A stretch of DNA of 27,657 bases from positions 6,531,482 to 6,559,138 of the forward strand of contig CP070771.1 of assembly GCA_020345785.1 (NCBI GenBank), read 5' to 3'. This document shows, in pieces, positions 11,113 through 26,381 of the stretch (the first letter of the stretch is position 1; each line of letters begins with the position of its first letter). The notes under the pieces were generated by a model, which was not told the DNA's origin, ran no database searches, and saw nothing but the letters and a program-made list of their open reading frames with translations. Origin of the DNA: Desulfobacterales bacterium. Its GTDB lineage: Bacteria > Desulfobacterota > Desulfobacteria > Desulfobacterales > JAFDCJ01. The translations under genes were made by a program, and so were the position numbers.

Positions 11113-12717
11113 CTAATCTTCGCCTTTCTTTTTGGCTCCTCCGCCACTCTTGGTCAACGCTCCGTCCAGGCTGATAATCTCCAGACCCAGCTCGCGCAGC
11201 AGGGAATCTATCAAAGGTGCCTTAGCCTTGAAGCGCAACGCACTGTCAAAAATGCCATCGGTTCCGGAGGCGGCTCCCCTTTCCCCCCACAGACCGTCGG
11301 CCTGCACGATCTTGATGCTGTCTATCTTCTCCATGGGTTTAACACTTTCACGGAGGATTTCAGGCATATGGTCGATGATGTAGCGGCGTATATCCGCCGC
11401 GATCTGCTCCGGAGTTAAAATGTTGCGGGCCTCGTTTATCGCCTGGGTTCCTTCGGCTTCCACTTTGTAGCGGATCTTTTGGCCTTCGGCTTCAATCTTT
11501 ATGGCTTCGGTTCGGTCTGAAGCGGCTGCCTTTTCCGCTTCGGCCATAATTTTAAGCTCGATGGCCTTGCGCTCGGCCTCACGGGAAGCCTCGATGAGTT
11601 CGATGGCCTTGCGGCGCTCGGCTGCCTCCTGCTCGCGGGCGGTGATCACTCTCTCCTCGGCGGCCACCAAGTCAGCCCGCGCACGTTCAGCCTCCGCTTT
11701 GGCCTGGGAAGTCTGCATGGAGTCCTGGGATATCGCCACTTCACGGGCCTGCTCGGCCAGTTTTAAATATTTTTCCTTTTCGATCTCCCGCTCTTTCAGG
11801 GCCCGCTCGCGATCCAGGCGCTCTTCCTCAATTTCACGTTCCGAAATAATCCTGGCAATTTCCACCTTCTGTTTGGCGAGGATTTCCGCCTGATCGGCCT
11901 CCTGCGACTGTTTGGCTCTTTGCCTGGCGATCTCGGCCATCTGCTCGGCCTTGCGGCTTTCAATCTCCTGTTGCAGTTCCAGGCGGGCATAATTCTCTTC
12001 GCGTTCCAACGCCAGGTTGAGTTTTTCCGTTTCCAGATTTTTTTTTCGTATCTGGATTTTGGTGTCCTGCTCAATATCATTGCGGGTTTTTTTTCGGCTT
12101 TCAATCTTTTCGGTAAGCTGTGTCAGACCCTCTGCATCAAAAACGTTGGAAGGGTTAAAATAGCTCATGTCTGTCTGATCCAACTGGGTCAGCGAGGCCG
12201 CCTCCAGTTCCAAACCATTGCGCGATAAGTCTTCTTCCACCGCCGCGCGTATTTTGCCGATAAACGCCTTACGTTGTTCGTGGAGTTCCTCCAGGGTCAT
12301 CTCGGCGGCGGTGGAGCGGATGGTGTCGATGAATTTGCCTTCCACGATCTCTTTCAGGTCTGCGGCACTTTTTGTTCGGGCGCCCAAGGTGCTTGCAGCT
12401 GTTGATATCGCGTTCAAGTCCGGGGCAACATGGACGTAAAACTCGGCGATTACATCCACCCGCATGCGATCCTTGGTGATAACCGACTGATCCTTAACGC
12501 GCTGTACCTCCAGTCGCAAGGTGTTCATATATACATCGATTACCTCGTGCAGTCCGGGAATGACTATCGCCCCGCCGGTTTTGGCTACCTTTTCCCCCCC
12601 TAATCCTGTGCGCACGAAGGCTATTTCTTTGCTGGCGCGCTTGTAAAAGATAAAGAAAAGGACGATCAATACGATCGCCAGCAGGATGAGAAAACTGATG
12701 AATGCTGACATAGACAT
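11113..12717 (-). CDS. Flotillin-like SPFH/band 7 membrane scaffold protein
   Basis: A 534-residue flotillin homologue (FloT/YqiK type). It has one N-terminal membrane segment (about 4-24) followed by basic YKR, an SPFH/band 7 domain (about 30-200, including VITKDRMRVDVIAEFYVHV), and a long Ala/Glu/Arg-rich coiled coil (about 205-450) typical of flotillins. The C-terminal part (to 534) ends in Gly/Lys-rich sequence. Flotillins oligomerise at the inner membrane and organise membrane microdomains, affecting the assembly of membrane complexes. The start is ATG 12717, with a second ATG two codons on (MSMSAF). The gene follows the SRPBCC gene by 44 bases on the same strand, and a strong terminator ends it. 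Confidence 0.95.
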   Translation of the reverse strand: MSMSAFISFLILLAIVLIVLFFIFYKRASKEIAFVRTGLGGEKVAKTGGAIVIPGLHEVIDVYMNTLRLEVQRVKDQSVITKDRMRVDVIAEFYVHVAPDLNAISTAASTLGARTKSAADLKEIVEGKFIDTIRSTAAEMTLEELHEQRKAFIGKIRAAVEEDLSRNGLELEAASLTQLDQTDMSYFNPSNVFDAEGLTQLTEKIESRKKTRNDIEQDTKIQIRKKNLETEKLNLALEREENYARLELQQEIESRKAEQMAEIARQRAKQSQEADQAEILAKQKVEIARIISEREIEEERLDRERALKEREIEKEKYLKLAEQAREVAISQDSMQTSQAKAEAERARADLVAAEERVITAREQEAAERRKAIELIEASREAERKAIELKIMAEAEKAAASDRTEAIKIEAEGQKIRYKVEAEGTQAINEARNILTPEQIAADIRRYIIDHMPEILRESVKPMEKIDSIKIVQADGLWGERGAASGTDGIFDSALRFKAKAPLIDSLLRELGLEIISLDGALTKSGGGAKKKGED

Positions 12718-12761: not shown

Positions 12762-13199
12762 TTAACCCGCAAAATGTTTCTTGAGTGCATCAAAGCCGGC
12801 CTGGAACACGCCGCTGCCGATCTGATCCGCCGTATCCTTTTCACTTCCCGGCGTGGTTTCAAATTCGGCCGTCCATTCGGCAAACGTGTGGTTGCCGTCC
12901 GTTATGGGAGTCAATTTGAGGCCGGCAATGTAATTTTTCACATCCAGTCCAGACTCGATAATCGCGTAGGAGAAGCTGTAGTCAAAGTCCGACAGGGACA
13001 ACAATTGTTCCCGCACCTGGATGCCGTCGGTCAGAGTGAGGAGACGGATACAGCCTATGGAATCGCTAGGCCTTCCGCCCTCAATAGTGCTGCGGGATAT
13101 CAGGGGGTGCCAATTCGGCATATCGTTAAAATCGCGCACCACCGCCCACACTTTTTCCGCCGGGGCCGGGATCACCGAACTAACAAAAACCTTGACCAT
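12762..13199 (-). CDS. SRPBCC-family (START-like lipid/ligand-binding) protein
   Basis: A 145-residue small cytoplasmic protein of the SRPBCC fold, seen from the typical opening VSSVIPAPAEKVWAVVRDFN (6-25), the NWHPLI block (29-34), the central SYAIIESGLDVKNYIAG strand region and the closing amphipathic helix GVFQAGFDALKKHF (129-142). Members of this fold (polyketide cyclase/dehydrase-like, PYR/PYL-like) hold a hydrophobic ligand in a deep pocket; individual roles vary widely. The ATG has GGAGG seven bases upstream. It lies 44 bases before the flotillin gene and 161 bases after the LivF-Tm-1 fusion on the same strand, so cotranscription with flotillin is likely and with the transporter possible. 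The ligand is unknown. Confidence 0.85.
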   Translation of the reverse strand: MVKVFVSSVIPAPAEKVWAVVRDFNDMPNWHPLISRSTIEGGRPSDSIGCIRLLTLTDGIQVREQLLSLSDFDYSFSYAIIESGLDVKNYIAGLKLTPITDGNHTFAEWTAEFETTPGSEKDTADQIGSGVFQAGFDALKKHFAG

Positions 13200-13360: not shown

Positions 13361-15595
13361 TCAGTGTCTAACGGCGATCTCATTAAAAGCCCTCACCAGG
13401 GCGTCGGCAAAAGCCGGATTGTTGATGTCATAAGGCAGACGCTCAAGGCGGCGCCGCTCATTCTGATTTACCGTCCTTTCAAGTGCCTCGAACAGGGCAG
13501 CGTCGGCATGGGCATCGTGGAAGACTGCTCCCGGAGTTTCAACCAGGGACATGCCGCCTTCGGGAATGAAAAATCGAACCTGGCCTTGCATTTGATTGAG
13601 CTTGTTTCCAATCCATTCGCCAATCTTCTTTGATTCCTCGGCCGTGATCCGAACGATGGTCACTTGCGGGTTGTGACGGTATATGTTGCGGCCCTGATAG
13701 CGCTCCGGTACCGTTTCAGGCGCACCGAAGTTGATCATCTCCAGGGCTCCGCATGCGCCGACATAAGGTACACCGGTTCGAATGATTGCGCCCATGCGGT
13801 CTTCTCCGGCGCTGAGCACTCCCCCCAGAAGATGATCGGTAACCTCTGATGTCGTAATGTCTATGACGCCTTCCAGGACACCCGAGTCCACCAATTTTTC
13901 CATGGAACGGCCTCCGGTGCCGGTGGCATGGAAAACCAAGCAGTCGTATTTGTGCTCCAGTTTTTTGACGACTGCCTGTACACAAGGTGTCGTCACTCCG
14001 AACATGGTCAAGCCGATGGCCGGCTTGTGTTGGACACCCTTTGGTTTCTCGCCGGACATCATCCCCACCAGGGCGTTGGCTGCATTCGCCAGCACGCGCT
14101 CCGATATGCGATTGATGCCGGCAACATCGGTGACCGAATAGAGCATACAAATATCCGATGCACCCACATAAGGCTTGACATTGCCGCTGGCCATGGTGGA
14201 GACCATGATTTTAGGTACGCCGACGTTCAAACTTTGCATGCCCGGAGTGGCCAAAGCGGTTCCACCCGAACCGCCCAGGGAAATTACGCCCCCCACATCC
14301 TTGCGCGAATCCAGAAAGCGTGCAAAAGCTTCTGACATGGCGGTTACGGCGGAGCCCCGGTCGCCGGTGAAGACTGCGCCGGATCCCTTGGGGTGATGGG
14401 CCGCTACATCGGACGGCTTCACGTCAGCCATCGATGGCTGGCCCGATGTGCTCAAATCCACGGTTTTCACCCGGATGTTCTGGGCGGCAATCAAATTGCC
14501 GACGAACATCAGTTCGCGCTGTTTGGTGTCAAAAGTTCCGACGACGTAGGCAACACCGTCCAGCTTCGGTACCGTGGAAGCCGCCGCCGGACCGGTTTTG
14601 GAACCTGGAGTCGGAAGATCCAAGGTTCGCCGGGCGGACAGATTGTCCACCCTACCCCAGCGGGTGATCTGTTGGGTAATACCGGTCCGAACTTTTTCGC
14701 TCAGGAAGCCCCGGGCAAGCGGGTTGCCGTGGGACCAGCGAGTCGCCACCCCCTCGCCGCTCGGTTGTAAACCGCTCGTCGCTGGGAGTCGGCGGGCAGT
14801 CGGAGGTGCGGAAGCCTCGGCGGCAGGTTGCGGCGCCTCTTGCACCGTTGCTTCCTCTTCCGAGCTGACTCCTAAGAGGCGCTGCTGAAGGGCGCGGTCG
14901 GCGGCCAGGGTAGCCGAGTCCAGTTCGGTCTCGATCCGGCCGTTGACCATGACGGCCAAACGCCTGGCCACTTTAGTGGCAACCCCAAGATTTTGCTCAA
15001 CCAATAAGACTGCCAGATCCTCCTCGCGCGCCAGCCGTATCAGCAGGTCTTCCACCTGCTTGACGATCTGGGGAGCCAGACCTTCGGTGGGCTCATCCAT
15101 AATCAGCAGCTTCGGGTTGGCCACTAGGGACCGGCCGATAGCGAGCATTTGCTGTTCACCGCCGGAGAGCTGGTTGCCCTCGTGCTGGCGGCGTTCGGCC
15201 AGGCGCGGGAATACCCTGTAGACACTTGCCGCATCCCAGGGACCGCTGCCCCTGGCCGCCACCCTTAAGTGCTCGTCGACGGTCAGAGAGGGCCACAGAC
15301 GGCGTCCTTGGGGCACATAGCCCGCCCCCTGGTCTACGATGCGGTACGGTTGCATGCCCAGCAGCTCCCGCCCGTCCAGCAGGACACTGCCGCCGCCTGA
15401 GCGCACCAGTCCCATGATGGCGTTGCAGAGGGTGGTTTTGCCCATTCCATTGCGGCCCACGATTCCCAGAACACCGTGATGTTCCAGCGAGAAGGATACC
15501 CCTTGCAGCACATGAATGTGCCCATAGTAAACATGCAGGTCGCTTACGGCTAAAATCGCCTTGCTATGGGTTGTCTTTTCAGCGATGGCTTTCAC
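13361..15595 (-). CDS. Fusion of a LivF-type ABC ATPase with a Tm-1-like (UPF0261) domain
   Basis: A 744-residue two-part protein. Residues 14-242 are a complete LivF-type ABC ATPase: Walker A GRNGMGKTT (47-55), signature LSGGEQQM (143-150), Walker B LLIMDEPTEGL (163-173), and LLVEQN, usual for LivF. Residues 243-345 are a Pro/Ala/Ser-rich then basic linker. Residues 347-742 are a Tm-1-like ATP-binding (UPF0261) domain with VGTFDTKQREL (352-362), the glycine-rich SLGGSGGTALATPG (439-452), FHATGTGGRSMEKL (555-568) and ITTSEVTDHLLGG (580-592). UPF0261 proteins usually stand alone at about 400 residues. The start is GTG 15595, overlapping the end of livG by 17 bases. The reading frame is continuous across the join, so this is a true fusion, not two genes. 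The fusion probably tethers a cytosolic enzyme to the importer; its reaction is unknown. Confidence 0.93.
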   Translation of the reverse strand: MKAIAEKTTHSKAILAVSDLHVYYGHIHVLQGVSFSLEHHGVLGIVGRNGMGKTTLCNAIMGLVRSGGGSVLLDGRELLGMQPYRIVDQGAGYVPQGRRLWPSLTVDEHLRVAARGSGPWDAASVYRVFPRLAERRQHEGNQLSGGEQQMLAIGRSLVANPKLLIMDEPTEGLAPQIVKQVEDLLIRLAREEDLAVLLVEQNLGVATKVARRLAVMVNGRIETELDSATLAADRALQQRLLGVSSEEEATVQEAPQPAAEASAPPTARRLPATSGLQPSGEGVATRWSHGNPLARGFLSEKVRTGITQQITRWGRVDNLSARRTLDLPTPGSKTGPAAASTVPKLDGVAYVVGTFDTKQRELMFVGNLIAAQNIRVKTVDLSTSGQPSMADVKPSDVAAHHPKGSGAVFTGDRGSAVTAMSEAFARFLDSRKDVGGVISLGGSGGTALATPGMQSLNVGVPKIMVSTMASGNVKPYVGASDICMLYSVTDVAGINRISERVLANAANALVGMMSGEKPKGVQHKPAIGLTMFGVTTPCVQAVVKKLEHKYDCLVFHATGTGGRSMEKLVDSGVLEGVIDITTSEVTDHLLGGVLSAGEDRMGAIIRTGVPYVGACGALEMINFGAPETVPERYQGRNIYRHNPQVTIVRITAEESKKIGEWIGNKLNQMQGQVRFFIPEGGMSLVETPGAVFHDAHADAALFEALERTVNQNERRRLERLPYDINNPAFADALVRAFNEIAVRH

Positions 15596-16364
15596 CCAGA
15601 TATATGCTTTGCACGTCGGGATCCTCCTGTACAGCTGAGGGCGAACCCTCTTTGAAAACAGTCCCGTTGTGCATAATGGTTACACTGTCAACGACTTTGA
15701 GGGCAACTTCCAAATCGTGTTCGATGATGATAAATCCAATGTGCCGCGGCAGGCCATTTAGCATCGAAACCAGACTCATTCGTTCGGCCGCTGAAAGTCC
15801 GGCGGCCGGTTCGTCCAAAAGAAGGAAGCGGGGAGCGCCCGCCAGGGCCATGCCGATCTCCAATTGGCGCTGCTGGCCGTGGGACAGTTCTCCCACCGGC
15901 CGATGCAGCACCTCATGCAAACCGACGAACCTTGCGGTCATCTCCGTCTGGTCCAACACCGTATCGTCCGGACCCGGGCGGCGAAATGAATAGCGCCGCC
16001 TGGCTACTCCCCGCAGTGCCAGAAACAGGTTGTCCCGCACCGAGAGCTTCATGAACAAAAGGGTCTGCTGATAGGTGCGTCTCAATCCCCGTCGAATGCG
16101 CTCATGAGTAGCCAAATGGGTTATGTCTTCACCAAAAAGCCGGATGCTGCCGCTGGTGGGCGGAAAATCACCGGTAATGGCGTTGAACAGGGTGGTCTTG
16201 CCTGCGCCATTGGCCCCCAACACGGCGCGCCGTTCGCCCGCGGCTATCTGCATGGATACATCCTTGATTGCCTCCAGGGCACCGAAGGTCCTCCCTACGC
16301 CCACGATCTCTAAGGCGAAGGGAGTTCCGACGGTATTCAACGGCGTGACATCCTGCTTGTCCAA
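15579..16364 (-). CDS. Branched-chain-amino-acid-type ABC transporter ATPase (LivG type)
   Basis: A 261-residue cytoplasmic ATPase of the Liv family, partner of the LivF-type ATPase fused to the Tm-1-like domain. Walker A GANGAGKTT is at 50-58, Gln99/Gln100 form the Q-loop region, the signature LSHGQQRQ is at 160-167, Walker B FLLLDEP at 180-186 and the switch His216 in EHD. The start appears to be TTG at 16364, with AAGGAG about 11 bases upstream; a second TTG at codon 9 is possible. It follows the binding-protein gene by 25 bases and overlaps the next gene by 17, so it is part of one operon. The substrate is not necessarily an amino acid; Liv-type importers also carry amides, urea and aromatic or other acids. 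Confidence 0.94.
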   Translation of the reverse strand: MDKQDVTPLNTVGTPFALEIVGVGRTFGALEAIKDVSMQIAAGERRAVLGANGAGKTTLFNAITGDFPPTSGSIRLFGEDITHLATHERIRRGLRRTYQQTLLFMKLSVRDNLFLALRGVARRRYSFRRPGPDDTVLDQTEMTARFVGLHEVLHRPVGELSHGQQRQLEIGMALAGAPRFLLLDEPAAGLSAAERMSLVSMLNGLPRHIGFIIIEHDLEVALKVVDSVTIMHNGTVFKEGSPSAVQEDPDVQSIYLGESHR

Positions 16365-16389
16365 TGAATCCTTATCTCCTTAAAACCGA

Positions 16390-17640
16390 TTAATCGCAGG
16401 GGGGGTTGTTGCGTCCCACCGGTCCCAGATCCAGAAACTTCTGGCGATCCCAGCCCATGACCTGGTTGACCATGGGGATTGTCTCAATCACCTTATTGTA
16501 AAGGTTGCCGTCTTCGCCAAGCACCACCTCGGTCAGGAATATATCGGCGATGGCCTGTCGGTTCTCGTCGAGCTTGATCAAGCCGCCTGGTGCCTGCAGC
16601 TCCAATTTGGCAAGAGCCTCGCGGAAGGCCTTTTGCCCGTTGGATAAATCCCCTTTTACCTGTTCCAGAGCCTCCAGTGCCGCCAAGGTCGCACAATAAT
16701 AACCATAGGTAAAAAGGGAAGGCGACGGAAATCCTTTCGGGTATTCCTTGCGGTAATCGGCAACATATTTCAACCAGGACGGCTTTTGCGAAGAGTCGGC
16801 AATGGGGCCGGCAGACGGCGTCCCGATGACGAAATCCCGGCGACGTCCCTTGGAACCGAGCACTGACTGATCCATGGTGATAGAGCCGCCGATCAGCGGT
16901 TTGTCGCCGCCGGCCATCTCGTATTGGCTCAGGAAGTTGACGGCATCGGCCCCGCCCAGGGCGACGTAGATAGCGTCGATGTCATCGGGTATCGATGCCA
17001 CGATGGTGCTGAAGTCCTTGTTGCCGATGGGCACCCAGAAACGATCGAGCACTTTGCCACCCGCTTCGCAATATCCCAGGAGAAATCCAAGCACTTGGGT
17101 GTAGGGAAAGGAGTAGTCCTCGGCGATTGTGACAATTTTCTTATATCCTTTGACGTTGTAAGCATACTCGCCCAGGCCGGCCATCCACTGGGCACCGTCG
17201 GTCTGCCAGCGGAAGAAGTTGGGGGCCGGATCGCGCAGGGTGGTGTCCTGGGCAGCCGAGGATCCGTTGAGGATGGTCACCTGGGGCTGGGTCTTGGCAT
17301 AATTCTTCAGTGCAATGCCTTCCGAACCCGAAAGCGGTCCGATCACCAGATCCACCTTGTCCTGTTCCACCAGCTTGCGTACGGCCCTGACCGCACTGTC
17401 CGGGCTTGCATCCGAAGACATGGTAATCATCTCAATTTTTTTCCCGGCTACCATGTAATTCCTCTCTTTAAGCGCCTGTTTGACGCCGCGGACACCGTCC
17501 TCGCCCAAGGCCGCAAAGGCCCCCTCCAGGGTGGCGATGACGCCGAACTTGAATTCGTCTTTGGCATGCGCTGCGACGGCAACGCCCAGGAATGCAACCA
17601 GAGCCAAAAAGATAAACAGCCGTGTCAGATTCTTTTTCAT
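16390..17640 (-). CDS. Liv-type ABC transporter periplasmic substrate-binding protein
   Basis: A 416-residue exported binding protein of the Leu/Ile/Val-binding (Peripla_BP_6) family. The signal peptide is residues 1-26 (MKKN... ending VAAHA, cleavage before KDEF). The mature start FKFGVIATLEGAFAALGEDG and the block DKVDLVIGPLSGSEGIALKN are typical of the first lobe; a second lobe follows with DIDAIYVALGGADAVNFL. An AGGAGG site precedes the ATG. The 91-base spacer to livM is the only sizeable gap inside the transporter block. It captures the substrate for the LivH/LivM permease pair. The ligand cannot be identified from the sequence; the neighbouring enzymes suggest an organic acid or similar small metabolite. 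Confidence 0.94.
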   Translation of the reverse strand: MKKNLTRLFIFLALVAFLGVAVAAHAKDEFKFGVIATLEGAFAALGEDGVRGVKQALKERNYMVAGKKIEMITMSSDASPDSAVRAVRKLVEQDKVDLVIGPLSGSEGIALKNYAKTQPQVTILNGSSAAQDTTLRDPAPNFFRWQTDGAQWMAGLGEYAYNVKGYKKIVTIAEDYSFPYTQVLGFLLGYCEAGGKVLDRFWVPIGNKDFSTIVASIPDDIDAIYVALGGADAVNFLSQYEMAGGDKPLIGGSITMDQSVLGSKGRRRDFVIGTPSAGPIADSSQKPSWLKYVADYRKEYPKGFPSPSLFTYGYYCATLAALEALEQVKGDLSNGQKAFREALAKLELQAPGGLIKLDENRQAIADIFLTEVVLGEDGNLYNKVIETIPMVNQVMGWDRQKFLDLGPVGRNNPPCD

Positions 17641-17731
17641 TTTTTCCTCCTTTTCTTGGTTGGGTTAGTCGTTGTCAACCAAACCTATCCTGTTCAATTT
17701 TCATTCCTCATTTTTTCTGTTCTTTCCAACG

Positions 17732-18730
17732 TCAACGCCGAACGATAGCCTCCTTTATCTTTTGCCACAACCCTAAGATGCCGTCCGGTGAAAAAAGCAC
17801 GATCGCCAAAAAAACGGTGCCGATCAGTAAATTGAAACGCTCACGGGCGATCAGGTCGATGGCGAAGTTTTCCAGCAGAATGTACAGCACTGCCCCGGCA
17901 AAGGCGCCGATGGGATGCCCCAATCCCCCCACAAACGCGATGATCAGGATATCTATGGTGACTCCGATGCCGACCGAGGCGGGATCGATGCGCCCGTTCA
18001 GCCAGACTGTCAGCACACCGCCCAATGAGGCAATCAGGGCGGCAATGGTATAGGCTAAAATGCGATGAGCGGTCACATTGAAGCCCAGAGCGTGCATGCG
18101 CCGGTCATTGTCGCGGATGCCTTGCAAAGACAATCCAAAGGTGGACCTGCCCAGATAGACAGTTGCGGCGTAGGCAATGGCGGCCGTGACCAGGCTCATA
18201 TAGTAGAACGGAATCGGATCGCGCAGGTTGACTCCTGCAATAGCCGGAGGTTTCAGGCCCGCAAATCCCGTCCAGCCGTTAAAAATTGGATAGTTCTGCC
18301 TGACGAAATAATAGAAACCCACACTGATTGCAAGTGTAATCATGATGGTGTAGATCCCCTCGGTGCGCACCGAGATCGCCCCGATCAAGGTTCCAAAGAT
18401 CACCGCGATCAGTACCGCCATCAAGATCGTTGGGAGCCAGGGCCAGCCCAGACCCATTTTTTGGTCGTTGAAGCCCCAAATCGCCACCATGTATCCGGCG
18501 CAGCCGGCCACGCTGAGCTGGGCCAGGGATACCATGCCCCCATAACCGGCCAGTAACGTCACGCTCAAGGCGATTACCCCCAGAATGAATGCCTGAGCCC
18601 CGATCTGCACCGTCCAGAAGGGCGAGGCGATCCAGGGATAGATCAACAGGAAAGCGCCCAGTAGAATATAACTCACTCCCGCAGCCCGGCTGTTGACGGT
18701 AGGGATTTGCGCCGAGCGGCCGGCCATCAT
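17732..18730 (-). CDS. Branched-chain-amino-acid-type ABC transporter permease (LivM type)
   Basis: A 332-residue polytopic inner-membrane permease with about nine hydrophobic segments. Family hallmarks are the cytoplasmic coupling block LQGIRDNDRRMHALGFNV and the late DILIIAFVGGLGHPIGAFAG segment. The ATG at 18730 overlaps the LivH stop as ATGA and is preceded by GGAGGAAGG, so translation is coupled. Together with LivH it forms the membrane channel. Confidence 0.95.
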   Translation of the reverse strand: MMAGRSAQIPTVNSRAAGVSYILLGAFLLIYPWIASPFWTVQIGAQAFILGVIALSVTLLAGYGGMVSLAQLSVAGCAGYMVAIWGFNDQKMGLGWPWLPTILMAVLIAVIFGTLIGAISVRTEGIYTIMITLAISVGFYYFVRQNYPIFNGWTGFAGLKPPAIAGVNLRDPIPFYYMSLVTAAIAYAATVYLGRSTFGLSLQGIRDNDRRMHALGFNVTAHRILAYTIAALIASLGGVLTVWLNGRIDPASVGIGVTIDILIIAFVGGLGHPIGAFAGAVLYILLENFAIDLIARERFNLLIGTVFLAIVLFSPDGILGLWQKIKEAIVRR

Positions 18731-19587
18731 ACCTTCCTCCCGAAAAAACCCTGGGGGCGGAAAGCCAGGGTAACCACCATGATTATAAACGTATAAACCA
18801 CGCCGTAGGTGGGTGAGTAGGCCAGGCCGAACTGTTCGGCCAATCCGATGAGCAGTGCCCCCAAGGCCGCCCCGCCCACACTGCCCATGCCCCCCACTAT
18901 GACGACAACCAGGGACGCCAGCAGATAGCGGACATCCTCGCCCGGAGCTATGGACAAGGCGCTTCCACCCACTACCCCGGCCAGACCGGCCAGACCGGCG
19001 CCGATGGCAAAGACAACGGCAAACACGCGGTGGACATTAACCCCGGTGGCGGCCAGCATATTTTTATCGTCCACTCCGGCCCTGATTTGCATGCCCACTT
19101 TGGTGCGGGTCAGAAAATACCACAGCGCCAGACCAATCACGATTGCCACCCCCAGGATGAACAGGCGGTAGGTCGTGTAAACCCGCACCAGCGGCAGACG
19201 GGTGATGCCGTAAAGCGCATCGGGAATTTCAAATTGATACGTCGTGCCGCCCCAGATGGCCAGCATCAGATCGGCTATGATGATGGAAATGCCGATGCTG
19301 ACCATGGTCTGACGGATATCCTGGCCTTCTATGTGGCGGAAGATGCACACCTGAAACAAAAGCCCCATGATGGCCATGGAGAGGAAGCCGGACGCCACCC
19401 CCAATATCCAGGAACCGGCCAGCTCATGAATGGAGAAACCGATGTAAGCGCCCAAAAGATAAAGCGAACCGTGTGCCAGATTTACATTCCGCATGAGTCC
19501 GAATACAAGGGTGAAGCCGCTTGCCACAAGAAAATAAAGGGCGGCGAGGGTGAGTCCATTCAGAATGGTCAAAACAAACAGTTTCAC
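18727..19587 (-). CDS. Branched-chain-amino-acid-type ABC transporter permease (LivH type)
   Basis: A 286-residue inner-membrane permease with about eight hydrophobic segments. It shows the LivH landmarks NVNLAHGSLYLLGAY near the N-terminus, the coupling loop GMQIRAGVDDKNMLAATGVN and the C-terminal VVIVGGMGSVGGAALGALL. I read the start as GTG at 19587, with only a weak GGTTAGG upstream. It is the first transporter gene after the SorC-type regulator, 79 bases downstream of it on the same strand. The gap contains the small palindrome TCCGCC-TGA-GGCGGA (19609-19623). Confidence 0.95.
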   Translation of the reverse strand: MKLFVLTILNGLTLAALYFLVASGFTLVFGLMRNVNLAHGSLYLLGAYIGFSIHELAGSWILGVASGFLSMAIMGLLFQVCIFRHIEGQDIRQTMVSIGISIIIADLMLAIWGGTTYQFEIPDALYGITRLPLVRVYTTYRLFILGVAIVIGLALWYFLTRTKVGMQIRAGVDDKNMLAATGVNVHRVFAVVFAIGAGLAGLAGVVGGSALSIAPGEDVRYLLASLVVVIVGGMGSVGGAALGALLIGLAEQFGLAYSPTYGVVYTFIIMVVTLAFRPQGFFGRKV

Positions 19588-19625
19588 TGAAAGTTTACCT
19601 AACCTGGATCCGCCTGAGGCGGAGA

Positions 19626-19657
19626 ATTGACTATTGAAAATCGAAAATATTCAATCC
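19626..19657. repeat. Intergenic repeat relative (ATTGACTATTGAAAATCG)
   Basis: This AT-rich stretch between the regulator and livH resembles the ATTGAATATTGAAGATTG family seen at 13220 and 21987, and ends in an inverted word (AATATTCAAT). It lies beside the palindrome TCCGCCTGAGGCGGA (19609-19623). No function is evident. Confidence 0.45.
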
Positions 19658-19666
19658 AAATCAGTG

Positions 19667-20629
19667 TCAGTTGATCATGCGCATTACTTCCATGGCATTG
19701 TCGGAATCAGTGATGAGTACGTGAATAACACCGGTATGCAGCGCCCCAAGAATCGCTTTTGATTTGCCCTTTTCGCTTACCACTGCGATGACGGTGCGGA
19801 TATGGCGCAAATCATCCAGAGTTAATCCCACAAGATGACCGTGCGTCTCGGGATTGATCAGGCGTCCCTCTAAATCGAAGTAGGTACCCAGCATGTCGCC
19901 GACAGCGCCGCTATGCGCCAGTTTTTTGGCCTCAGGCAACGAGATACAGTCCATGCGCACCAAAGTGGCGTCATCTGAGGGCGTGCCAATGCCGACAATG
20001 GCAATATCTGCCTTTCTGGCTTTGGTTAAGATTGGGCCGACTGCTTCCTGGGCGTACAGGATATCCCGGACCCTTTTACTTTCAACATAGGCTGGAGCAT
20101 GCAGATGAATTGCCCTTCCCCCCGAGTTGGCGGCTAACTTTTGACAGATATCGTTGGGATTAATCGACTCGCCGACATGCGGCGAGCTTCCCATGGCGCT
20201 GACAAAAGTGCAATTAATCCTGCTAGACGGATGGTAGAAATCCGGAATGCCGCCTGTGTTCCGACCCATGCCCACAGTCACGACCATGCCGTCGGACAAA
20301 TGGCGTTCGAGATAGCCGGCTGCTGCCCGGGTGACCGACCGCCTCCGTTCTTCTTCATCAGGGTACGAAGCCGCGACCAGTGCGTCACTTAAGTTGAATC
20401 TGCTTTTGAGTTTTTTTTCGAAATCCAGCGAGACCGCCGTCGAAGTTTTTATGTTGATTTCGACGATCCCTAACTCTCTTGCCTGGCTGAGCAGCCGCTG
20501 AACTTTTTGACGGGATATGCCTAAAGCACGAGCGACTTCTACCTGGGTCTTCCCTTCTAGATAATAGAGAGACGCCATCCTGGCCAGAAACTCGAGAAAA
20601 CTGCGATCTTCATCCGGGTATTGGAGCAT
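19667..20629 (-). CDS. SorC/DeoR-type sugar-binding transcriptional regulator
   Basis: A 320-residue regulator. Residues 26-55 form a helix-turn-helix (QVEVARALGISRQKVQRLLSQ within it), followed from about residue 60 by the SorC-type effector-binding domain, with VVTVGMGRNTGG, ADIAIVGIGTPS and the C-terminal LGALHTGVIHVLITD. Such proteins usually bind a phosphorylated sugar or similar metabolite through the C-terminal domain and control adjacent catabolic genes. It lies at the head of the minus-strand Liv transporter block and is divergent from the three TIM-barrel genes, so it probably controls both. The inverted repeat at 21010-21038 is the best candidate operator. Start ATG 20629 has a weak ribosome binding site. 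Confidence 0.9.
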   Translation of the reverse strand: MLQYPDEDRSFLEFLARMASLYYLEGKTQVEVARALGISRQKVQRLLSQARELGIVEINIKTSTAVSLDFEKKLKSRFNLSDALVAASYPDEEERRRSVTRAAAGYLERHLSDGMVVTVGMGRNTGGIPDFYHPSSRINCTFVSAMGSSPHVGESINPNDICQKLAANSGGRAIHLHAPAYVESKRVRDILYAQEAVGPILTKARKADIAIVGIGTPSDDATLVRMDCISLPEAKKLAHSGAVGDMLGTYFDLEGRLINPETHGHLVGLTLDDLRHIRTVIAVVSEKGKSKAILGALHTGVIHVLITDSDNAMEVMRMIN

Positions 20630-21009
20630 AGTTGCGTCTCGGAACTGCTACAACTTACTAAAGATATTCCAATAATATGAGAGTAATAGCAGAATGCGGA
20701 GGGTTTTGGATCCTTTTTTCGTCAGAGCCATCACAGCATTACTCCAGAACCCATGATTCCACTAATCCAGCATTCCAACATTCGCCCGCTGTAAAGCGGG
20801 ATGCGCGAAACGGACTGAGTGCTGCTCAATTGGGCATTTGCTCGCAAGGTGGACAACTTTGTATATATAAAGACATTCCGGCTGTCAAGAATTACTTGGA
20901 GATACTTTGTGATATCTAAAACCAGCATAAATTCATTGCCGTAACGCTAACCATCTGAATTAACAGTATCTGACTCATTATGCTCCATTAAGGGAATCAC
21001 CCGCGGCAT

Positions 21010-21038
21010 ATTCCGCAAATGGTTGAATTTTACGGAAT
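21010..21038. promoter_or_regulatory. Candidate operator: inverted repeat ATTCCGCAAAT...ATTTTACGGAAT
   Basis: ATTCCGCAAAT (21010-21020) and ATTTTACGGAAT (21027-21038) form a nearly perfect dyad with a 6-base spacer. It ends 6 bases before the -35 box of the promoter of the TIM-barrel genes. Position and symmetry fit a binding site for the divergent SorC-type regulator. Confidence 0.6.
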
Positions 21039-21044
21039 TTACTC

Positions 21045-21073
21045 TTGACTTGGGAGTAACAACTTTCTATTAT
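21045..21073 (+). promoter_or_regulatory. Sigma70-type promoter of the TIM-barrel gene cluster
   Basis: TTGACT (21045-21050) and TATTAT (21068-21073) are separated by exactly 17 bases, five of six matches at each box to the TTGACA/TATAAT consensus. Transcription would begin near 21080, about 65 bases before the first TIM-barrel start codon. Confidence 0.75.
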
Positions 21074-21143
21074 GCCTGGAAACCCAATATTTTGAGCAAA
21101 TGCCCACATTTAGTTTATCATACATTTATGAGGAGGCTGTCAA

Positions 21144-21971
21144 ATGGCTTTTACCAGAAAGCAAATATTGGAGCGCTTGCAAAAAAGCATCGATGCCCGT
21201 ATCCCGATTATCGGCGGCGGCGCGGGCACCGGCATCTCGGCCAAATTCGAGGAGGCCGGCGGCGTGGATCTTATGGTCATTTACAACTCCGGACGTTTCC
21301 GCATGGCCGGCCGCGGGTCGCTGGCGGGCTGCATGCCCTATGGAGACGCCAATGCAATCGTCATGGAAATGGCCGACGAAGTTCTACCGGTGGTGAAAAA
21401 CACGCCCGTCTTGGCCGGTGTCTGCGGAACCGATCCTTTCAGACTCATGGATAAGTTTCTCCAAAAAGTCAAAGATGCAGGATTTTCCGGGGTGCAGAAC
21501 TTTCCAACCGTAGGGTTGTATGACGGTCAGTTTCGACAGAATTTGGAGGAAACCGGCATGGGCTACGGGCTTGAAGTCGACATGATCGGCATGGCCCGCG
21601 ATCTGGATCTGTTTACGACGCCTTACGCCTTCAGCACGGATGAAGCCAAGGCCATGGCCGAGGCCGGCGCCGATGTGGTAGTCGCCCATTTAGGGCTTAC
21701 GACCAAGGGTTCCATCGGTGCGACCACCGCCGTGACCCTGGATCAGGCTCCAGCTAAAGTGCAGGAAATCGTAAATGCGGCCAAAAGTGTCAACCCCAAC
21801 ATCATCTGCCTTTGCCATGGCGGCCCCATTTCCATGCCCGAGGACGCGGAATACGTGCTCAAAAATACGGAGGGCGTCCACGGATTTTACGGCGCCTCCA
21901 GCATGGAGCGTCTACCGACGGAGGTGGCCATTACTGAACAGATGAAAAAATTCAAGGCAATCAGGTTCTAG
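21144..21971 (+). CDS. PEP-hydrolase-like TIM-barrel protein (PF09370 family), paralogue 1
   Basis: A 275-residue cytoplasmic TIM-barrel protein of the family annotated as phosphoenolpyruvate hydrolase-like, which is also the C-terminal domain of the tomato protein Tm-1. Blocks seen are GGGAGTG (24-30), IYNSGRFR (46-53), NFPTVGL (119-125), [13 protein letters not shown] (174-186), CHGGP (224-228) and [11 protein letters not shown] (250-260). The biochemical reaction of the family is poorly defined. The ATG at 21144 has AGGAGG upstream. It is the first of three tandem paralogues, behind a strong promoter, divergent from the regulator and from the transporter operon that carries the UPF0261 domain. 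It shares IYNSGRFR and NFPTVGL exactly with paralogue 2 but not with paralogue 3. Confidence 0.9.
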
Positions 21972-21986
21972 TCCGGACGAGCCGGG

Positions 21987-22022
21987 ATTGAATATTGAAG
22001 ATTGCAAATTGAATTTTTGTGG
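21987..22022. repeat. 36-base intergenic repeat, copy 2
   Basis: This 36-base stretch between TIM-barrel paralogues 1 and 2 starts ATTGAATATTGAAGATTG and ends TTTTTGTGG. It matches 13220-13255 at 33 of 36 positions in the same orientation, which is well beyond what AT-richness alone would give. Confidence 0.7.
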
Positions 22023-22163
22023 CTGTTGTATTTCTGCATTCCAGTTGAAATCAAAGGATAACTTAAATATTAAATCGCTGCAGGCTAGCCAAATTATCCC
22101 AATGTAGTTTTTTGGACCCAAAATGCAAGAAAACAACAATTATGGCAACCAGAGGAGGAAGAG

Positions 22164-23030
22164 ATGGCTAAGAAATATTCGCGCGCGGAAGTCAACGCCC
22201 GACTGAAAGAAACTTTGAAGCAGGGTAAGCCCATTATTATCGGCGGCGCAGGTGATGGATTTACCGCCAAGCTTGAGGAAAAGGGCGGCTTGGACATCAT
22301 CGGCATATACAACTCAGGACGGTTCCGGCACTTCGGAGCCGGTTCGCTGTCCGGTCTGATGCCGGTGGGGCGCAACCAGGACATGGTCATGGACTATGCC
22401 GCCGAGGTACTGTCCATGGTCAAGCATACGCCGGTGATAGCCGGTTTCTGTTCGCAGGACTCAAGAACCCTGTGGGAATACTGGTTTAATACCCTGACTG
22501 CCATGGGCGTTTCCGGGTTTATGAACTTCCCCACGGTTGGACTGATCGACGCCGACTCGCATTATCGCAAGAATCTGGAAGAATCCGGACTCGGTTACAG
22601 CAAGGAAATCGAAGTCCTGAAGCTGGCCCATGCGATGGACTTGTTTACGATCGGCTATTGCTTTACGCCTGAAGAAGCGGAAATGGTCGCCAAAGCAGGG
22701 GTGGACGTGGTCGCCTGTCATGTCGGCTTGACCGCAGGAGGCCTGATCGGCGCTGAGAGCGTCATGAGCCTGGAAGAAAGCGTGCGGGTGACAAACGACC
22801 TTATCAAAGCCGCCAGACGCGTCCGGCCGAAGGGGGATTTCTTTGCCATTACCCACGGCGGTCCAATGGAAGACCCCAAGAGCACTACCTATGTGATGGA
22901 GCATACCGAGGCGGTGGGCTACTTGGGCGCCTCCAGCATTGAACGGACTCCGGTTGAGCCGGCGGTGGTGAAGGTCTGCGAGGAATTTAAGAGCATGCCG
23001 GTGAACATACCGGAATGGTTGAAGCTCTAA
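22164..23030 (+). CDS. PEP-hydrolase-like TIM-barrel protein (PF09370 family), paralogue 2
   Basis: A 288-residue TIM-barrel protein, slightly longer than its neighbours through a C-terminal extension (NIPEWLKL). It keeps the family blocks IIIGGAGDG (24-32), IYNSGRFR (48-55), NFPTVGL (121-127), THGGP (230-234) and GASSIERTPVE (255-265). The ATG at 22164 follows the strong site GAGGAGGAAGAG. It lies 192 bases after paralogue 1 and 95 before paralogue 3, all on the same strand, so one transcript is likely. Paralogues 1 and 2 resemble each other more than paralogue 3 in the motif regions. Whether the three have different substrates or form a mixed complex cannot be decided from the sequence. Confidence 0.9.
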   Translation: MAKKYSRAEVNARLKETLKQGKPIIIGGAGDGFTAKLEEKGGLDIIGIYNSGRFRHFGAGSLSGLMPVGRNQDMVMDYAAEVLSMVKHTPVIAGFCSQDSRTLWEYWFNTLTAMGVSGFMNFPTVGLIDADSHYRKNLEESGLGYSKEIEVLKLAHAMDLFTIGYCFTPEEAEMVAKAGVDVVACHVGLTAGGLIGAESVMSLEESVRVTNDLIKAARRVRPKGDFFAITHGGPMEDPKSTTYVMEHTEAVGYLGASSIERTPVEPAVVKVCEEFKSMPVNIPEWLKL

Positions 23031-23125
23031 GTCGACCGAAAATTTTCAATTTTCCCGCGTTGCGCATTGATGGCATTGCTTGTTCAGAGTGTTCTCGTTT
23101 AACTCGTTTCCCATAAGGAGGTACC

Positions 23126-23968
23126 TTGGCCAGAAAATACACAAGAAAGCAAGTGCTGGAGCGATTGCATCGTCAAATTGAAGCACAAAAGCCTCTGCTC
23201 ATGTTCGGTGCGGGCATCGGTTTGACCGCCAAATGCGCCGAACTGGGCGGGGCGGACCTTATCGCCGTTTATTCCACCGCCATCTACCGTATGAAGGGCC
23301 AGCACACACTTATGGCTTTTCTGCCTTATTCCAATGCCAATGAGCATGTGGCCAAAATGGCTACCGAGATTCTGCCTGCCGTTAAGGAGACTCCCTGCAT
23401 CGTGGGCATCGGAGCCCATGATCCTGGCCTGGATCTGGAAAGTTTTCTGAATCGAATGATGGGTTTGGGCTTTTCCGGGGTGACCAACGAACCTTTTGCC
23501 GGGATTTACGGGCCGGCGTTTGCAGCTCAACTGGAACAAGCCGGATTGGGATTTTCCAGAGAAGTAGAGTTGATCGCTTTGGCCCATAAAAAGGACATCT
23601 TCACCTCCGGCTGGGCATTCAACCCGGATGAAGCCCGACGGATGGCAGAAGCCGGCGCCGATGTAATCGGCGCCCTGGTTGGGGTTACAGCCGGAGGACT
23701 GAGCGGGGCTTCGGAATCTCAAACATTGGAAGACGCCACCGAGACGGTCCGGGCCATTTGCCGGGCGGCCAAGGAAATAAATCCCCAGGTCATGATCTTA
23801 ACCCACGGCGGTCCTTTCAAAGATCCCGCCTCGGCGGAGTACTCGATAACAAATTCTGATGCAGTAGGGTATGCAGCCGGATCCAGCGGAGAACGGATGC
23901 CGACGGAAAAGGCGGTCATTGAGGTGACCAAATCCTATAAACGGATGAAACTTGTACATATGTCATGA
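23126..23968 (+). CDS. PEP-hydrolase-like TIM-barrel protein (PF09370 family), paralogue 3 (diverged motifs)
   Basis: A 280-residue TIM-barrel protein that starts at TTG 23126, behind AAGGAGG. The overall fold pattern and the blocks MFGAGIG (26-32), AGADVIGALVGVTAGG (176-191), THGGP (226-230) and GSSGERMPTE (252-261) are kept. At two places where paralogues 1 and 2 agree it differs: YSTAIYR (49-55) replaces YNSGRFR, and NEPFAGI (121-127) replaces NFPTVGL. Since these loops lie at strand ends of the barrel, where the active site is expected, this copy may use another substrate or have another role. The TTG start may lower its expression relative to the others. Downstream lie TTC-rich repeat words and then the flavoprotein gene. 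Confidence 0.88.
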   Translation: MARKYTRKQVLERLHRQIEAQKPLLMFGAGIGLTAKCAELGGADLIAVYSTAIYRMKGQHTLMAFLPYSNANEHVAKMATEILPAVKETPCIVGIGAHDPGLDLESFLNRMMGLGFSGVTNEPFAGIYGPAFAAQLEQAGLGFSREVELIALAHKKDIFTSGWAFNPDEARRMAEAGADVIGALVGVTAGGLSGASESQTLEDATETVRAICRAAKEINPQVMILTHGGPFKDPASAEYSITNSDAVGYAAGSSGERMPTEKAVIEVTKSYKRMKLVHMS

Positions 23969-23982
23969 GCCGGCCAGACCAT

Positions 23983-24012
23983 GTTCAGGGTTCCGGGTTC
24001 AGAGGTTCGGGG
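23983..24012. repeat. GTTCAGGGTTCCGGGTTC-type intergenic word repeat
   Basis: GTTCAGGGTTCCGGGTTCAG followed by AGGTTCGGGG is an imperfect tandem of a GGTTC word in the gap after paralogue 3. In the opposite strand it resembles the TTGAACC words at 3728-3752. No regulatory meaning is evident. Confidence 0.45.
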
Positions 24013-24152
24013 TAAAAAAGGAAGATCTATAGTTCCGCAAGTCGTGATGTGAAAAAAAGGCAAAGCCTTCAAGCCTCCTATGCTCCCGGCTCCCTCAGGG
24101 TTCAAGAAAGGTGGCCGGTGTGGTTGCGTTTATCAGAAAGGGTTACGAGCCT

Positions 24153-24728
24153 ATGAAGGTCGTGGCATTCAACGGCAGTGCCCGCCCGGACGGTAACTGC
24201 ACACTGTTGATCAAAGAGGTTTTCAGGCGACTGGAAGAGCACGATATTCAGACCGAACTTGTGCTGCTGAGCCGCAAAAAGATCAACCCCTGTACCGCCT
24301 GCTATAAGTGCCTTGAAAACAAGGACCAGCGCTGCGTCATTGAGGACGATGATCTTAACGCGTGCATCGCTAAAATGATGGACGCCCAGGGCATCATCCT
24401 GGCATCTCCCACCTATATCGGGGATGTCAGCTCGGTTACCAAAGCCTTGATTGACCGGGCAGGTTTCGTTGCCCGCTCCAACGGTAACATGTTCCGCAGG
24501 AAAGTCGGGGCGGCGTTGACCGCGGCCAGCTGGGGCGGCGCCATACACACCTTTGAAACCCTCAACCTATTTTTCCTTATCGGCGAGATGATTGTCGTGG
24601 GATCAAGTAATTGGAATCTGGGATTTGGAAGGGAAAAGGGACAGGTGCTCCAGGATCAAAAAGCCATGGAGACCATGCGCACCTTGGGTCACAACATGGC
24701 CTGGCTGATTAAAAAGTTGTACGCGTAA
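24153..24728 (+). CDS. Iron-sulfur flavoprotein / NADPH-dependent FMN reductase family protein
   Basis: A flavodoxin-fold redox protein of 191 residues from ATG 24153; an in-frame GTG at 24111 would add 14 residues, but the family N-terminus MKVVAFNGSARPDGN fits the ATG. The FMN-phosphate loop is GSARPDGN (8-15). The cysteines C47-x2-C50-x2-C53-x7-C61 match the compact motif of iron-sulfur flavoproteins (Isf), which ligate a [4Fe-4S] cluster. ASPTYIGDVSSVTK forms a second flavin loop. Such proteins move electrons between ferredoxins and small acceptors in anaerobes. It follows TIM-barrel paralogue 3 by 184 bases on the same strand and may be part of the same transcript. Its partner is unknown. 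Confidence 0.88.
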   Translation: MKVVAFNGSARPDGNCTLLIKEVFRRLEEHDIQTELVLLSRKKINPCTACYKCLENKDQRCVIEDDDLNACIAKMMDAQGIILASPTYIGDVSSVTKALIDRAGFVARSNGNMFRRKVGAALTAASWGGAIHTFETLNLFFLIGEMIVVGSSNWNLGFGREKGQVLQDQKAMETMRTLGHNMAWLIKKLYA

Positions 24729-25085: not shown

Positions 25086-26381
25086 ATGGATCAAAAAGAT
25101 AAGCAGGGTTTCTTTGCCGAGCACGCGGAACTGAATTCAGAAGACTATCTCATATTTGACTATTACTTCGAGTCGACGATTGCTCCCGAAGATGCAGCCG
25201 CACACCTGTGCCAGGAGCAGTCAACTGCACAATGGAAGCGGGTCGGTGTAGATGAAGATCTCCGCCGGCGGTTCGGCGCCAAGGTTATCGAGTTGATGGT
25301 CGAACGTGAGCTGGACCGACCATCCTATCCGTCGTTGGCGCCTTCAGCAGGGAAGGCGTACGGCTGCCGGGTCAAAATTGCTCACCCCCATGCCAATTTT
25401 GGCCCCAAACTGCCGAATATGTTGTCTGCGGCTTGCGGCGAGGGAACATTTTATTCAAAGGGGATTTCCGCTATTAAACTGTTTGATATTGAATTTCCCG
25501 ACAGCTTCCTGCAGCATTTCGAAGGCCCGAAATTCGGGATTGAGGGGTTGCGGGACTTGCTGCAGGTTTATGACCGGCCTTTGTTTTTCGGGGTGATAAA
25601 ACCTAATCTGGGCTTAAGTCCTGAACCCTTTGCAGAACTGGCGTACCAGGGCTGGTTGGGGGGGCTGGATATCGCCAAAGATGATGAGATGCTTTCGGAT
25701 GTCGCCTGGTCGCCCCTGCGACAGAGGGCCGCCCTTTTAGGGCAAGCCCGCTTGAAAAGTGAAAAAGAAACGGGGGAAAAGAAAATTTACCTGGCCAATA
25801 TTACCGATGAGGTCGATCGGTTAATTGAATTGCATGATATCGCCGTTGCGGGCGGTGCCAATGCCCTGTTGGTGAACGGGATGACCACGGGATTAAGTGC
25901 GGTGCGGATGCTCAGGAAACATTCCCAAGTGCCTCTGGTCGGCCATTTCCCGTTTATTGCACCTTTCACCCGCGCACCGTATTTAGGCGTCCACTCCAAG
26001 CTGATTACCAAATTGCAGCGCTTTGTCGGTTTTGATGTGGTCATCATGGCGGGATTCGGGGAAAGAATGAAAACGCCTGACAGCGAAGTACTGCTCAACG
26101 TTCAGGAATGTTTCAAGCCCCTGGGCCACCTTAAGAAAATTTTGCCGGTTCCGGCGGGCAGCCAATGGGCGGGGTCTGCCCCGGCCTTATATGAAAAATT
26201 GGGCACCATTGACTTCGGTATTGTACCGGGCAGAGGGGTATTCAGTCATCCCATGGGACCCAGAGCCGGTGCGGCAAGTCTGCGGCAGGCCTGGGATGCA
26301 CTGCAAAAGGGATTGACTCTTGAGGCCTATGCCCTTGACCACCCGGAGCTTAAGGCTGCGATAGAGGCGTTTGGTAAATGA
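25086..26381 (+). CDS. RuBisCO-like protein (form IV RuBisCO large-subunit homologue)
   Basis: A 431-residue homologue of the RuBisCO large subunit, spanning the N-terminal domain and the complete TIM barrel. The metal-site block [10 protein letters not shown] keeps Lys198, Asp200 and Glu201 (Lys201, Asp203 and Glu204 of plant RuBisCO), and Lys172 (Lys175) is kept in IKPNLGLS. However Lys177 is replaced by Asn174, the His327 region reads IMAGFGERM with Met321 at the His position, Lys334 is not aligned, and the SGG phosphate loop reads AGS. It is therefore a RuBisCO-like protein, not a carboxylase. Such proteins act as enolases or isomerases in methionine salvage, or as decarboxylases in apionate-type pathways. 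It is downstream of the flavoprotein on the same strand, after 357 bases. Its reaction is unknown. Confidence 0.93.

What the first reader, a model, noticed from the sequence alone, without database searches (positions are those of the whole stretch)
13361..24728. Candidate uncharacterised uptake-and-catabolism system: SorC regulator, Liv importer with built-in Tm-1-like domain, TIM-barrel trio, iron-sulfur flavoprotein
The regulator and all five transporter genes run one way, and the TIM barrels and flavoprotein run the other way from the shared control region. UPF0261 and the TIM barrel are known as two halves of the tomato protein Tm-1, so finding them split across a divergent locus, one half on the transporter, argues that they work in sequence on the imported compound. 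A SorC-type sensor suggests that a phosphorylated sugar-like or acid intermediate is the signal. I infer an inducible pathway for an unknown small acidic or sugar-acid substrate.
Basis: inference. Interest (0 to 1): 0.85.

Follow-up and report, generated by a model that had tools for sequence, protein, structure and literature searches.

The report
Importer-fused kinase feeding a RuBisCO-like enzyme
A bacterial gene cluster looks like a pathway that imports a small molecule, phosphorylates it with a kinase-like domain built into the importer's own motor protein, and hands it to TIM-barrel enzymes and a RuBisCO relative of unknown job, which offers a way to find out what such RuBisCO relatives do.

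Summary
In detail: SorC, LivH, LivM, binding protein, LivG and a LivF-UPF0261 fusion run one way; three PF09370 barrels and an iron-sulfur-type flavoprotein run the other.

Best reading: UPF0261 is a small-molecule kinase. A solved bacterial relative, Saro_1862, holds acetovanillone, and its host is reported to start acetovanillone catabolism with a single-component kinase, MarK. UPF0261 sits beside RLP genes in several phyla. Of 24 RLP neighbourhoods without UPF0261, 15 hold an FGGY or DUF1537 kinase; of 12 with it, one does. PF09370 models resemble phosphate-binding barrels. So: import, phosphorylate, then C-C chemistry.

The arms co-occur: five other contigs appear to carry fusion, barrel and RLP (equal contig lengths; not read). 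UPF0261-PF09370 pairing was in print; my searches found no report of the RLP link or of the importer-kinase fusion. No activity was measured. Substrate open: sugar acid or aromatic.

The parts
19667..20629 (-). SorC-type regulator
   Evidence: PF04198 1.9e-68; below the NCBIfam DeoR and LsrR cut-offs
18727..19587 (-). LivH-type permease
   Evidence: PF02653 9.5e-35
17732..18730 (-). LivM-type permease
   Evidence: PF02653 2e-31
16390..17640 (-). Liv-type substrate-binding protein
   Evidence: PF13458 2.2e-54
15579..16364 (-). LivG-type ATPase
   Evidence: PF00005 8.4e-31, PF12399
13361..15595 (-). LivF-type ATPase fused to a complete UPF0261 (Tm-1 N-terminal-like) domain, proposed kinase
   Evidence: PF00005 30-170, PF06792 350-516, PF23189 524-740; relatives 3WRY and 9MPY; NF002673 606.6 bits, cut-off 520
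12762..13199 (-).
   Evidence: PF10604 7e-25; recurs near the module in L001, L002, L004, L116, L117, L136, L141
11113..12717 (-).
   Evidence: PF15975 6.4e-35, PF01145 3e-16; recurs behind the fusion in L001, L002, L136, L141
20630..21143 (.). Divergent control region, 514 bp
   Evidence: read; repeats; a promoter-like match at 21045-21073(+) (number of matches in the region is at the shuffled level)
21144..21971 (+). PF09370 TIM barrel 1
   Evidence: 3.9e-133; model and folds
22164..23030 (+). PF09370 TIM barrel 2
   Evidence: 3.2e-93; 45% identical to barrel 1
23126..23968 (+). PF09370 TIM barrel 3
   Evidence: 1.7e-96; 44% identical to barrel 1; conserved before flavoprotein and RLP in L005
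24111..24728 (+). FMN flavoprotein with CX2CX2CX7C; the true start may be a downstream ATG
   Evidence: PF03358 1.9e-30; motif
25086..26381 (+).
   Evidence: PF00016 1.6e-53; nearest PDB 1TEL, 1YKW, 2QYG; tree

Best explanation
The locus imports a small molecule, phosphorylates it and rearranges or cleaves it. The Liv importer brings it in. The UPF0261 domain carried on the importer's second ATPase is a small-molecule kinase that phosphorylates the compound at or just after entry. PF09370 barrels and the RuBisCO-like protein act on the phosphorylated product (C-C cleavage, enolisation or decarboxylation), the flavoprotein supplies or removes electrons, and SorC senses a phosphorylated intermediate and controls both arms. 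Shown here: gene content, intact ABC and UPF0261 motifs, homology of UPF0261 to Saro_1862, repeated UPF0261-PF09370 and UPF0261-RLP linkage, other kinases in many RLP clusters that lack UPF0261. Inferred: that this UPF0261 is an active kinase, that phosphorylation is coupled to uptake, the order of steps, joint regulation, and the substrate (a sugar acid, lactone or keto acid seems more likely than an aromatic).
For: UPF0261 relative Saro_1862 solved with bound acetovanillone; host's acetovanillone catabolism is started by single-component kinase MarK (PMC13101465 passages). UPF0261 beside RLP in Anaerolineae, Desulfobacterales and Spirochaetes, about 15 kb away in one cluster in three Chloroflexi, and in tandem beside another RLP group in five genomes (0.23 expected by chance). 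UPF0261 in 16 of 18 RLP genomes outside the Chlorobi/purple-bacteria clade, 0 of 9 inside it. FGGY or DUF1537 kinase in 15 of 24 RLP neighbourhoods without UPF0261, 1 of 12 with it (P 0.0035). Class II aldolase beside UPF0261 in L058 is nearest a sugar-acid-phosphate decarboxylase, below cut-off. PF09370 model resembles phosphate-binding TIM barrels. Arms share contig lengths.
Against: No activity measured. MarK = Saro_1862 is my inference; its paper is not held. The window's UPF0261 is NF002673-type, the five RLP-linked ones scanned are best with NF002674 (L119 twice, L058, L101; window differs). In G001 RLP and nearest UPF0261 are about 300 kb apart. In Desulfobacteria only 3 of 147 genomes have a RuBisCO-family hit and 2 of these lack UPF0261. 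Nine of 24 RLP neighbourhoods have none of the three kinases. PF09370-UPF0261 loci read on plasmids have no RLP. L003 carries a separate PEP-utilizing kinase-like pair beside UPF0261.
Confidence: 0.55

Rival explanations
1. Aromatic reading: the imported compound is a phenol, other aromatic or heterocycle that UPF0261 phosphorylates on a ring hydroxyl, as MarK is thought to do; the RLP serves a side branch or is a lodger.
For: The only UPF0261 relative with a known ligand holds acetovanillone. Two fused relatives sit near aromatic dioxygenase or amidohydrolase genes (L001) or molybdenum hydroxylase genes (L002); unfused L003 also has a xanthine-dehydrogenase-type enzyme. Nitroreductase-like gene at 26466-27125.
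Against: SorC sugar-binding domain; RLP, class II aldolase, RpiB and lactonase-like partners of other UPF0261 genes. No biotin carboxylase of the Hpe type among the window proteins scanned.
Confidence: 0.22
2. Non-kinase reading: UPF0261 on the importer is an ATP-binding regulatory or scaffold domain that gates transport; PF09370 is its partner, as in plant Tm-1, and phosphorylation is done elsewhere or not at all.
For: Tm-1 binds and inhibits a viral replication protein rather than acting as a known enzyme (PMC5028733 passage). Fusion to an ABC ATPase fits regulation as well as catalysis.
Against: Residues invariant over distant UPF0261 proteins are kept in Saro_1862, whose host uses a single-component kinase for that ligand; kinase contrast in RLP clusters.
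Confidence: 0.15
3. Unrelated neighbours: importer arm and barrel/RLP arm are separate systems that happen to be divergent.
For: In G001 barrel 3, flavoprotein and RLP occur without the importer arm within 10 kb. The RLP gene is 357 bases behind the flavoprotein.
Against: Five other contig lengths are shared by fusion, barrel 2 and RLP relatives; elsewhere PF09370 lies directly behind the fusion.
Confidence: 0.04

Closest known systems
Saro_1862 (PDB 9MPY) of Novosphingobium aromaticivorans, very probably the kinase MarK
   Different: Stand-alone, 406 residues; the window's is fused to a Liv ATPase with PF09370 and RLP partners. About 30% identical.
Tomato Tm-1 (UPF0261 + PF09370 in one chain)
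   Different: Split over two arms here; the UPF0261 half is on an importer; PF09370 in three copies; Tm-1 is known for blocking a virus (PMC5028733 passage)
Fused Liv-UPF0261 operons of Variovorax, Yoonia and Desulfobacteria genome G299
   Same: LivH-LivM-binding protein-LivG-fusion-PF09370-flotillin-SRPBCC
   Different: No RLP, no PF09370 trio in the stretches read
Chlorobium tepidum RLP (1TEL, 1YKW) and R. palustris RLP2 (2QYG)
   Same: Nearest solved relatives over the full length
   Different: Those lineages lack UPF0261 in the 9 genomes tested and a purple-bacterial example lies in a photosynthesis cluster
D-apionate and tetronate pathways (OiaX RLP, DUF1537 kinase, OtnC; roles recalled)
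   Same: RLP or class II aldolase paired with an acid-sugar kinase; L020 has RLP with DUF1537 and an FBP-type aldolase
   Different: UPF0261 stands where DUF1537 or FGGY would be; the window RLP is far below the OiaX cut-off (247.7 of 700 bits)
HpeHI / AcvAB phenolic kinases
   Same: Phosphorylation as first catabolic step of hydroxyphenylethanones
   Different: ATP-grasp plus swivel domains (PMC12167813 abstract and passages), not UPF0261

Membership tests
UPF0261 (PF06792/PF23189) | Both Pfam domains above cut-off | tested here: met
   201.8 and 300.6 bits, cut-off 27 each
MarK / Saro_1862 kinase | Sequence homology and family-invariant residues | tested here: met
   E 6.2e-58; DTK, PK-ST-A-G, HxxGxGG, E, R, HN aligned by eye
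MarK / Saro_1862 kinase | Phosphoryl transfer to a small molecule | not testable with these tools
   No assay; the MarK paper is not held
MarK / Hpe acetovanillone pathway | Biotin-dependent carboxylase and phosphatase genes nearby | tested here: not met
   None among the 21 window proteins scanned with Pfam
Tm-1 | UPF0261 and PF09370 in one chain | tested here: not met
   Separate genes
PF09370 barrel (Mll9387-like) | PF09370 match and matching fold | tested here: met
RuBisCO (carboxylase) | K175, K177, K201, D203, E204, H294, H327, K334, S379 (spinach numbers recalled) | tested here: not met
   K172, K198, D200, E201, H287 kept; N174, I320, R327, A357 replace the rest (alignment with 2CWX); below all NCBIfam RuBisCO cut-offs listed
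OiaX | NCBIfam NF042437 cut-off 700 bits | tested here: not met
   247.7 bits
DK-MTP-1-P enolase (MtnW) | NCBIfam TIGR03332 (513.6) and NF007095 (409) cut-offs | tested here: not met
   164.6 and 197.7 bits
Chlorobium-type RLP clade | Falls with 1TEL-type sequences in a tree | tested here: met
   Window and L005 fall on the branch outside the 62-row Chlorobi/purple-bacteria clade (99/100) but within the 81-row group; root is midpoint only
Liv-type ABC importer | Two PF02653 permeases, PF13458 binding protein, two ABC ATPases | tested here: met
SorC regulator | N-terminal HTH and PF04198 sugar-binding domain | tested here: met
Iron-sulfur flavoprotein | FMN_red fold and compact CX2CX2CX4-7C (recalled) | tested here: met
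   PF03358; motif at 61; the cluster itself is not testable here

The most novel reading that the evidence does not exclude
An ABC importer with a kinase built into its motor subunit that phosphorylates its cargo on entry (an ATP-driven counterpart of the PTS), with UPF0261 kinases acting as dedicated suppliers of phosphorylated substrate to RuBisCO-like proteins; this would give a handle on the substrate of the Chlorobium / R. palustris type RLPs.
Probability: 0.3. Interest if true: 0.87.

Novelty: new variant of a known kind. Interest (0 to 1): 0.64.

Why it matters
UPF0261 and PF09370 are widespread families with almost no literature; RLPs of the Chlorobium type have solved structures but, as I recall, no assigned reaction; and plant Tm-1 is a virus-resistance gene whose ancestral bacterial function is unclear. 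If UPF0261 is a general small-molecule kinase that feeds RLPs and PF09370 barrels, all three questions become testable with one assay: find the ligand of the binding protein, phosphorylate it with the UPF0261 domain, and offer the product to the barrels and the RLP.

Tried and rejected
UPF0261 + PF09370 = HpeHI/AcvAB: I recalled this as likely (note); the papers show HpeHI is an ATP-grasp/swivel dikinase, so it was dropped. RuBisCO activity: rejected on active-site residues. Virus-borne RLP: a viral-contig scan with the window protein found none (close relatives only). Rfam: nothing at gathering score in the window. Operator search between the arms: many short repeats, one perfect 13-nt inverted pair at 20831-20843 / 21094-21106, not pursued. 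Other kinase folds among the 50 rows listed for the UPF0261 model: none seen, which excludes nothing. Replication of the RLP-UPF0261 link in Desulfobacteria: uninformative.

Samples and dropped rows. One search returned 80 of 175 confirmed RLP loci; from 89 rows I removed near-duplicate entries of the same genes, leaving 86; the label 'UPF0261-linked' was set only where I had looked, so its 7 changes (5 forced by well-supported branches, gains or losses) do not rule out one old linkage with losses; 36 neighbourhoods, 12 with UPF0261 (among them three related Chloroflexi clusters and three near-copies), L020, L135, L139, L140, and 20 of the 42 places; of the other 22 places, five are L118-L122, one is L135, two belong to G006 and 14 lower-ranked ones were not fetched. 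Only FGGY, DUF1537 and UPF0261 were sought there, not other kinase families. The chance figure uses rounded genome sizes and hand-copied gene counts.
Full report
Anatomy. Left arm (-): SorC, LivH, LivM, binding protein, LivG, then a 744-residue protein in which a LivF-type ATPase (PF00005 at residues 30-170) is followed by a complete UPF0261 protein (350-740). LivH/LivM and LivG/fusion overlap by 4 and 17 bases. The arm goes on with an SRPBCC protein (12762-13199) and a flotillin (11113-12717), after gaps of 161 and 44 bases. Right arm (+): three PF09370 barrels (barrels 2 and 3 are 45% and 44% identical to barrel 1), an FMN flavoprotein with CX2CX2CX7C, and a RuBisCO-like protein, RLP (25086-26381). 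The last gap, 357 bases, is the widest, so the RLP may have its own promoter; in Desulfobacterales genome G001, however, barrel 3, flavoprotein and RLP keep the same order (L005).

Host. The window's proteins are recorded on a 7,205,039-base contig. No genome is held for it. The closest RLP in the genome collection is from a Desulfobacterales MAG (86%); a Thermodesulfobacteriota host is an inference.

Do the arms belong together? Relatives of the fusion, the RLP and barrel 2 were listed, 120 each, with the longest contig of each cluster. Lengths 24366, 25661, 26972, 28629 and 129086 occur in all three lists; 37177 and 136187 in fusion and RLP; 38447 and 34668 in fusion and barrel 2; 346931, 21264, 6206 and 4777 in RLP and barrel 2. 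I could not read those contigs. Equal lengths above 20 kb are unlikely to be chance (the two short ones might be), so the locus appears conserved. In fused loci elsewhere the order is LivH-LivM-binding protein-LivG-fusion-PF09370-flotillin-SRPBCC: Variovorax L001, Yoonia L002 (PF09370 matches there lie in two pieces), and Desulfobacteria genome G299 (L136). Shinella L141, a record without annotation, shows fusion, flotillin and SRPBCC. PF09370 lies next to UPF0261 in 8 of 8 plasmid loci read (L001-L004, L114-L117, and for L002); they were picked from the best hits. That the two families go together was in print: 491 of 504 bacterial genomes with the barrel domain also had UPF0261 (PMC5028733, passages). 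The fusion is common: the 120 listed relatives, which are ranked by full-length score, all show the three domains.

The RLP link. A genome scan with an RLP alignment (80 of 175 loci returned) and tblastn showed UPF0261 beside RLP in L008 (Anaerolineae), L018 (Desulfobacterales, UPF0261 cut by the contig end), L051 and L058 (Spirochaetes). Neighbours there: lactonase-like MBL, sugar importer, SorC or UTRA regulators, class II aldolase, RpiB, in varying sets. The L058 aldolase scores best with 3-oxo-tetronate 4-phosphate decarboxylase, below its cut-off (104.3 of 250 bits); its MBL scores best with AiiA lactonase, also below. In three related Chloroflexi (L101, L103, L104) class II aldolase and UPF0261 end a long divergent cluster about 15 kb from the RLP. 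UPF0261 is present in 16 of 18 RLP genomes outside the Chlorobi/purple-bacteria clade and in 0 of 9 tested inside it. In 100 genomes of the class of G006, RuBisCO-family genes occur in 38 and UPF0261 in 24, together in 17 and UPF0261 alone in 7 (Fisher P 2.4e-4; relatedness not removed). Five of the 100 have at least two UPF0261 genes within 10 kb of another RLP, nearest MtnW in NCBIfam but below its cut-offs (two scanned), with MBL, UTRA and URO-D-type genes (L118-L122). Expected by chance: 0.23 genomes. On the RLP tree the linked label needs 7 changes, at least 5 forced by well-supported branches; gains and losses are not told apart.

Kinase contrast. RLPs with known reactions act on phosphorylated substrates (recalled; their NCBIfam names say so), so a kinase is expected nearby. 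Of 36 RLP-family neighbourhoods, 12 have UPF0261, and one of these also has an FGGY kinase, on the other strand about 4 kb beyond the cluster (L058). Of 24 without UPF0261, 14 have FGGY, one has DUF1537 (L020) and nine have neither, four of these on stretches under 10 kb (L144, L155, L156) or just above (L154). 15/24 against 1/12 gives P 0.0035. The loci are related, 20 of the 24 were chosen as having no UPF0261 nearby, and only these kinase families were sought, so this is supportive, not decisive.

The RLP. It keeps K198, D200 and E201 (carbamate and metal ligands), K172 and H287, but has N174, I320, R327 and A357 where RuBisCO has K177, H327, K334 and S379 (alignment with 2CWX, by eye; spinach numbers recalled). 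It is not a RuBisCO carboxylase but could still enolise a substrate. It lies far below the OiaX and MtnW cut-offs.

Against the reading. No activity was measured. The window's UPF0261 passes the NF002673 cut-off (606.6 of 520 bits), whereas the four RLP-linked ones scanned score best with NF002674. RLP and the nearest UPF0261 are about 300 kb apart in G001. In Desulfobacteria 3 of 147 genomes have a RuBisCO-family hit, 25 have UPF0261, and only G001 has both. The plasmid UPF0261-PF09370 loci show no RLP, and two fused relatives (L001, L002) sit with aromatic-type or molybdenum-hydroxylase genes, which keeps an aromatic substrate open. Unfused L003 carries a PEP-utilizing pair of its own.

Verdict. 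A real and apparently conserved locus. Known: the two Tm-1 halves going together and, very probably, UPF0261 as kinase. Not found in print by searches (open-licence papers only): the UPF0261-RLP link across phyla and the importer-kinase fusion as a working unit.

Noticed in passing
window 784-7220 (-) and 7669-8721 (+): A second sugar or polyol uptake set: glycerol-1-phosphate dehydrogenase-like, FGGY kinase, extracellular binding protein, two permeases, and divergent GpsA-like dehydrogenase. The binding-protein region shows two overlapping ORFs (3771-4886, 4858-5277), the shorter without a Pfam match.
   Followed up: no
window 26466-27125 (-): Nitroreductase-like gene converging on the RLP; best NCBIfam match below cut-off (86.9 of 227 bits).
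   Followed up: no
window 9265-11007 (+): 580-residue protein with weak TPR matches only.
   Followed up: no
L162 8001-9314: A purple-bacterial RLP on a Thiodictyon plasmid lies inside a photosynthesis cluster (bchYZ, puf, idi), directly behind a YjbQ gene.
   Followed up: partly
L118-L122: Clusters with UTRA, MBL, UPF0261, URO-D-type, UPF0261, URO-D-type and an MtnW-like RLP; two of them add DeoC/LacD aldolase and BKACE.
   Followed up: partly
L003 12739-21905: In Thermomicrobium an unfused UPF0261-PF09370 pair lies near a PEP/pyruvate-binding protein and a PEP-utilizing enzyme, a combination that recalls phenolic dikinases.
   Followed up: no
L125 7270-9402 and L128 7003-9711: Long ORFs (710 and 902 residues) holding PF09370 or UPF0261 matches; L125 could be a bacterial Tm-1-like fusion, since a UPF0261 match lies in the same stretch.
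   Followed up: no
L004, L115, L116, L117: A longer protein annotated as PEP hydrolase family (about 580-620 residues) recurs near the UPF0261-PF09370 pair, in three of these four with a Gfo/Idh/MocA oxidoreductase.
   Followed up: no
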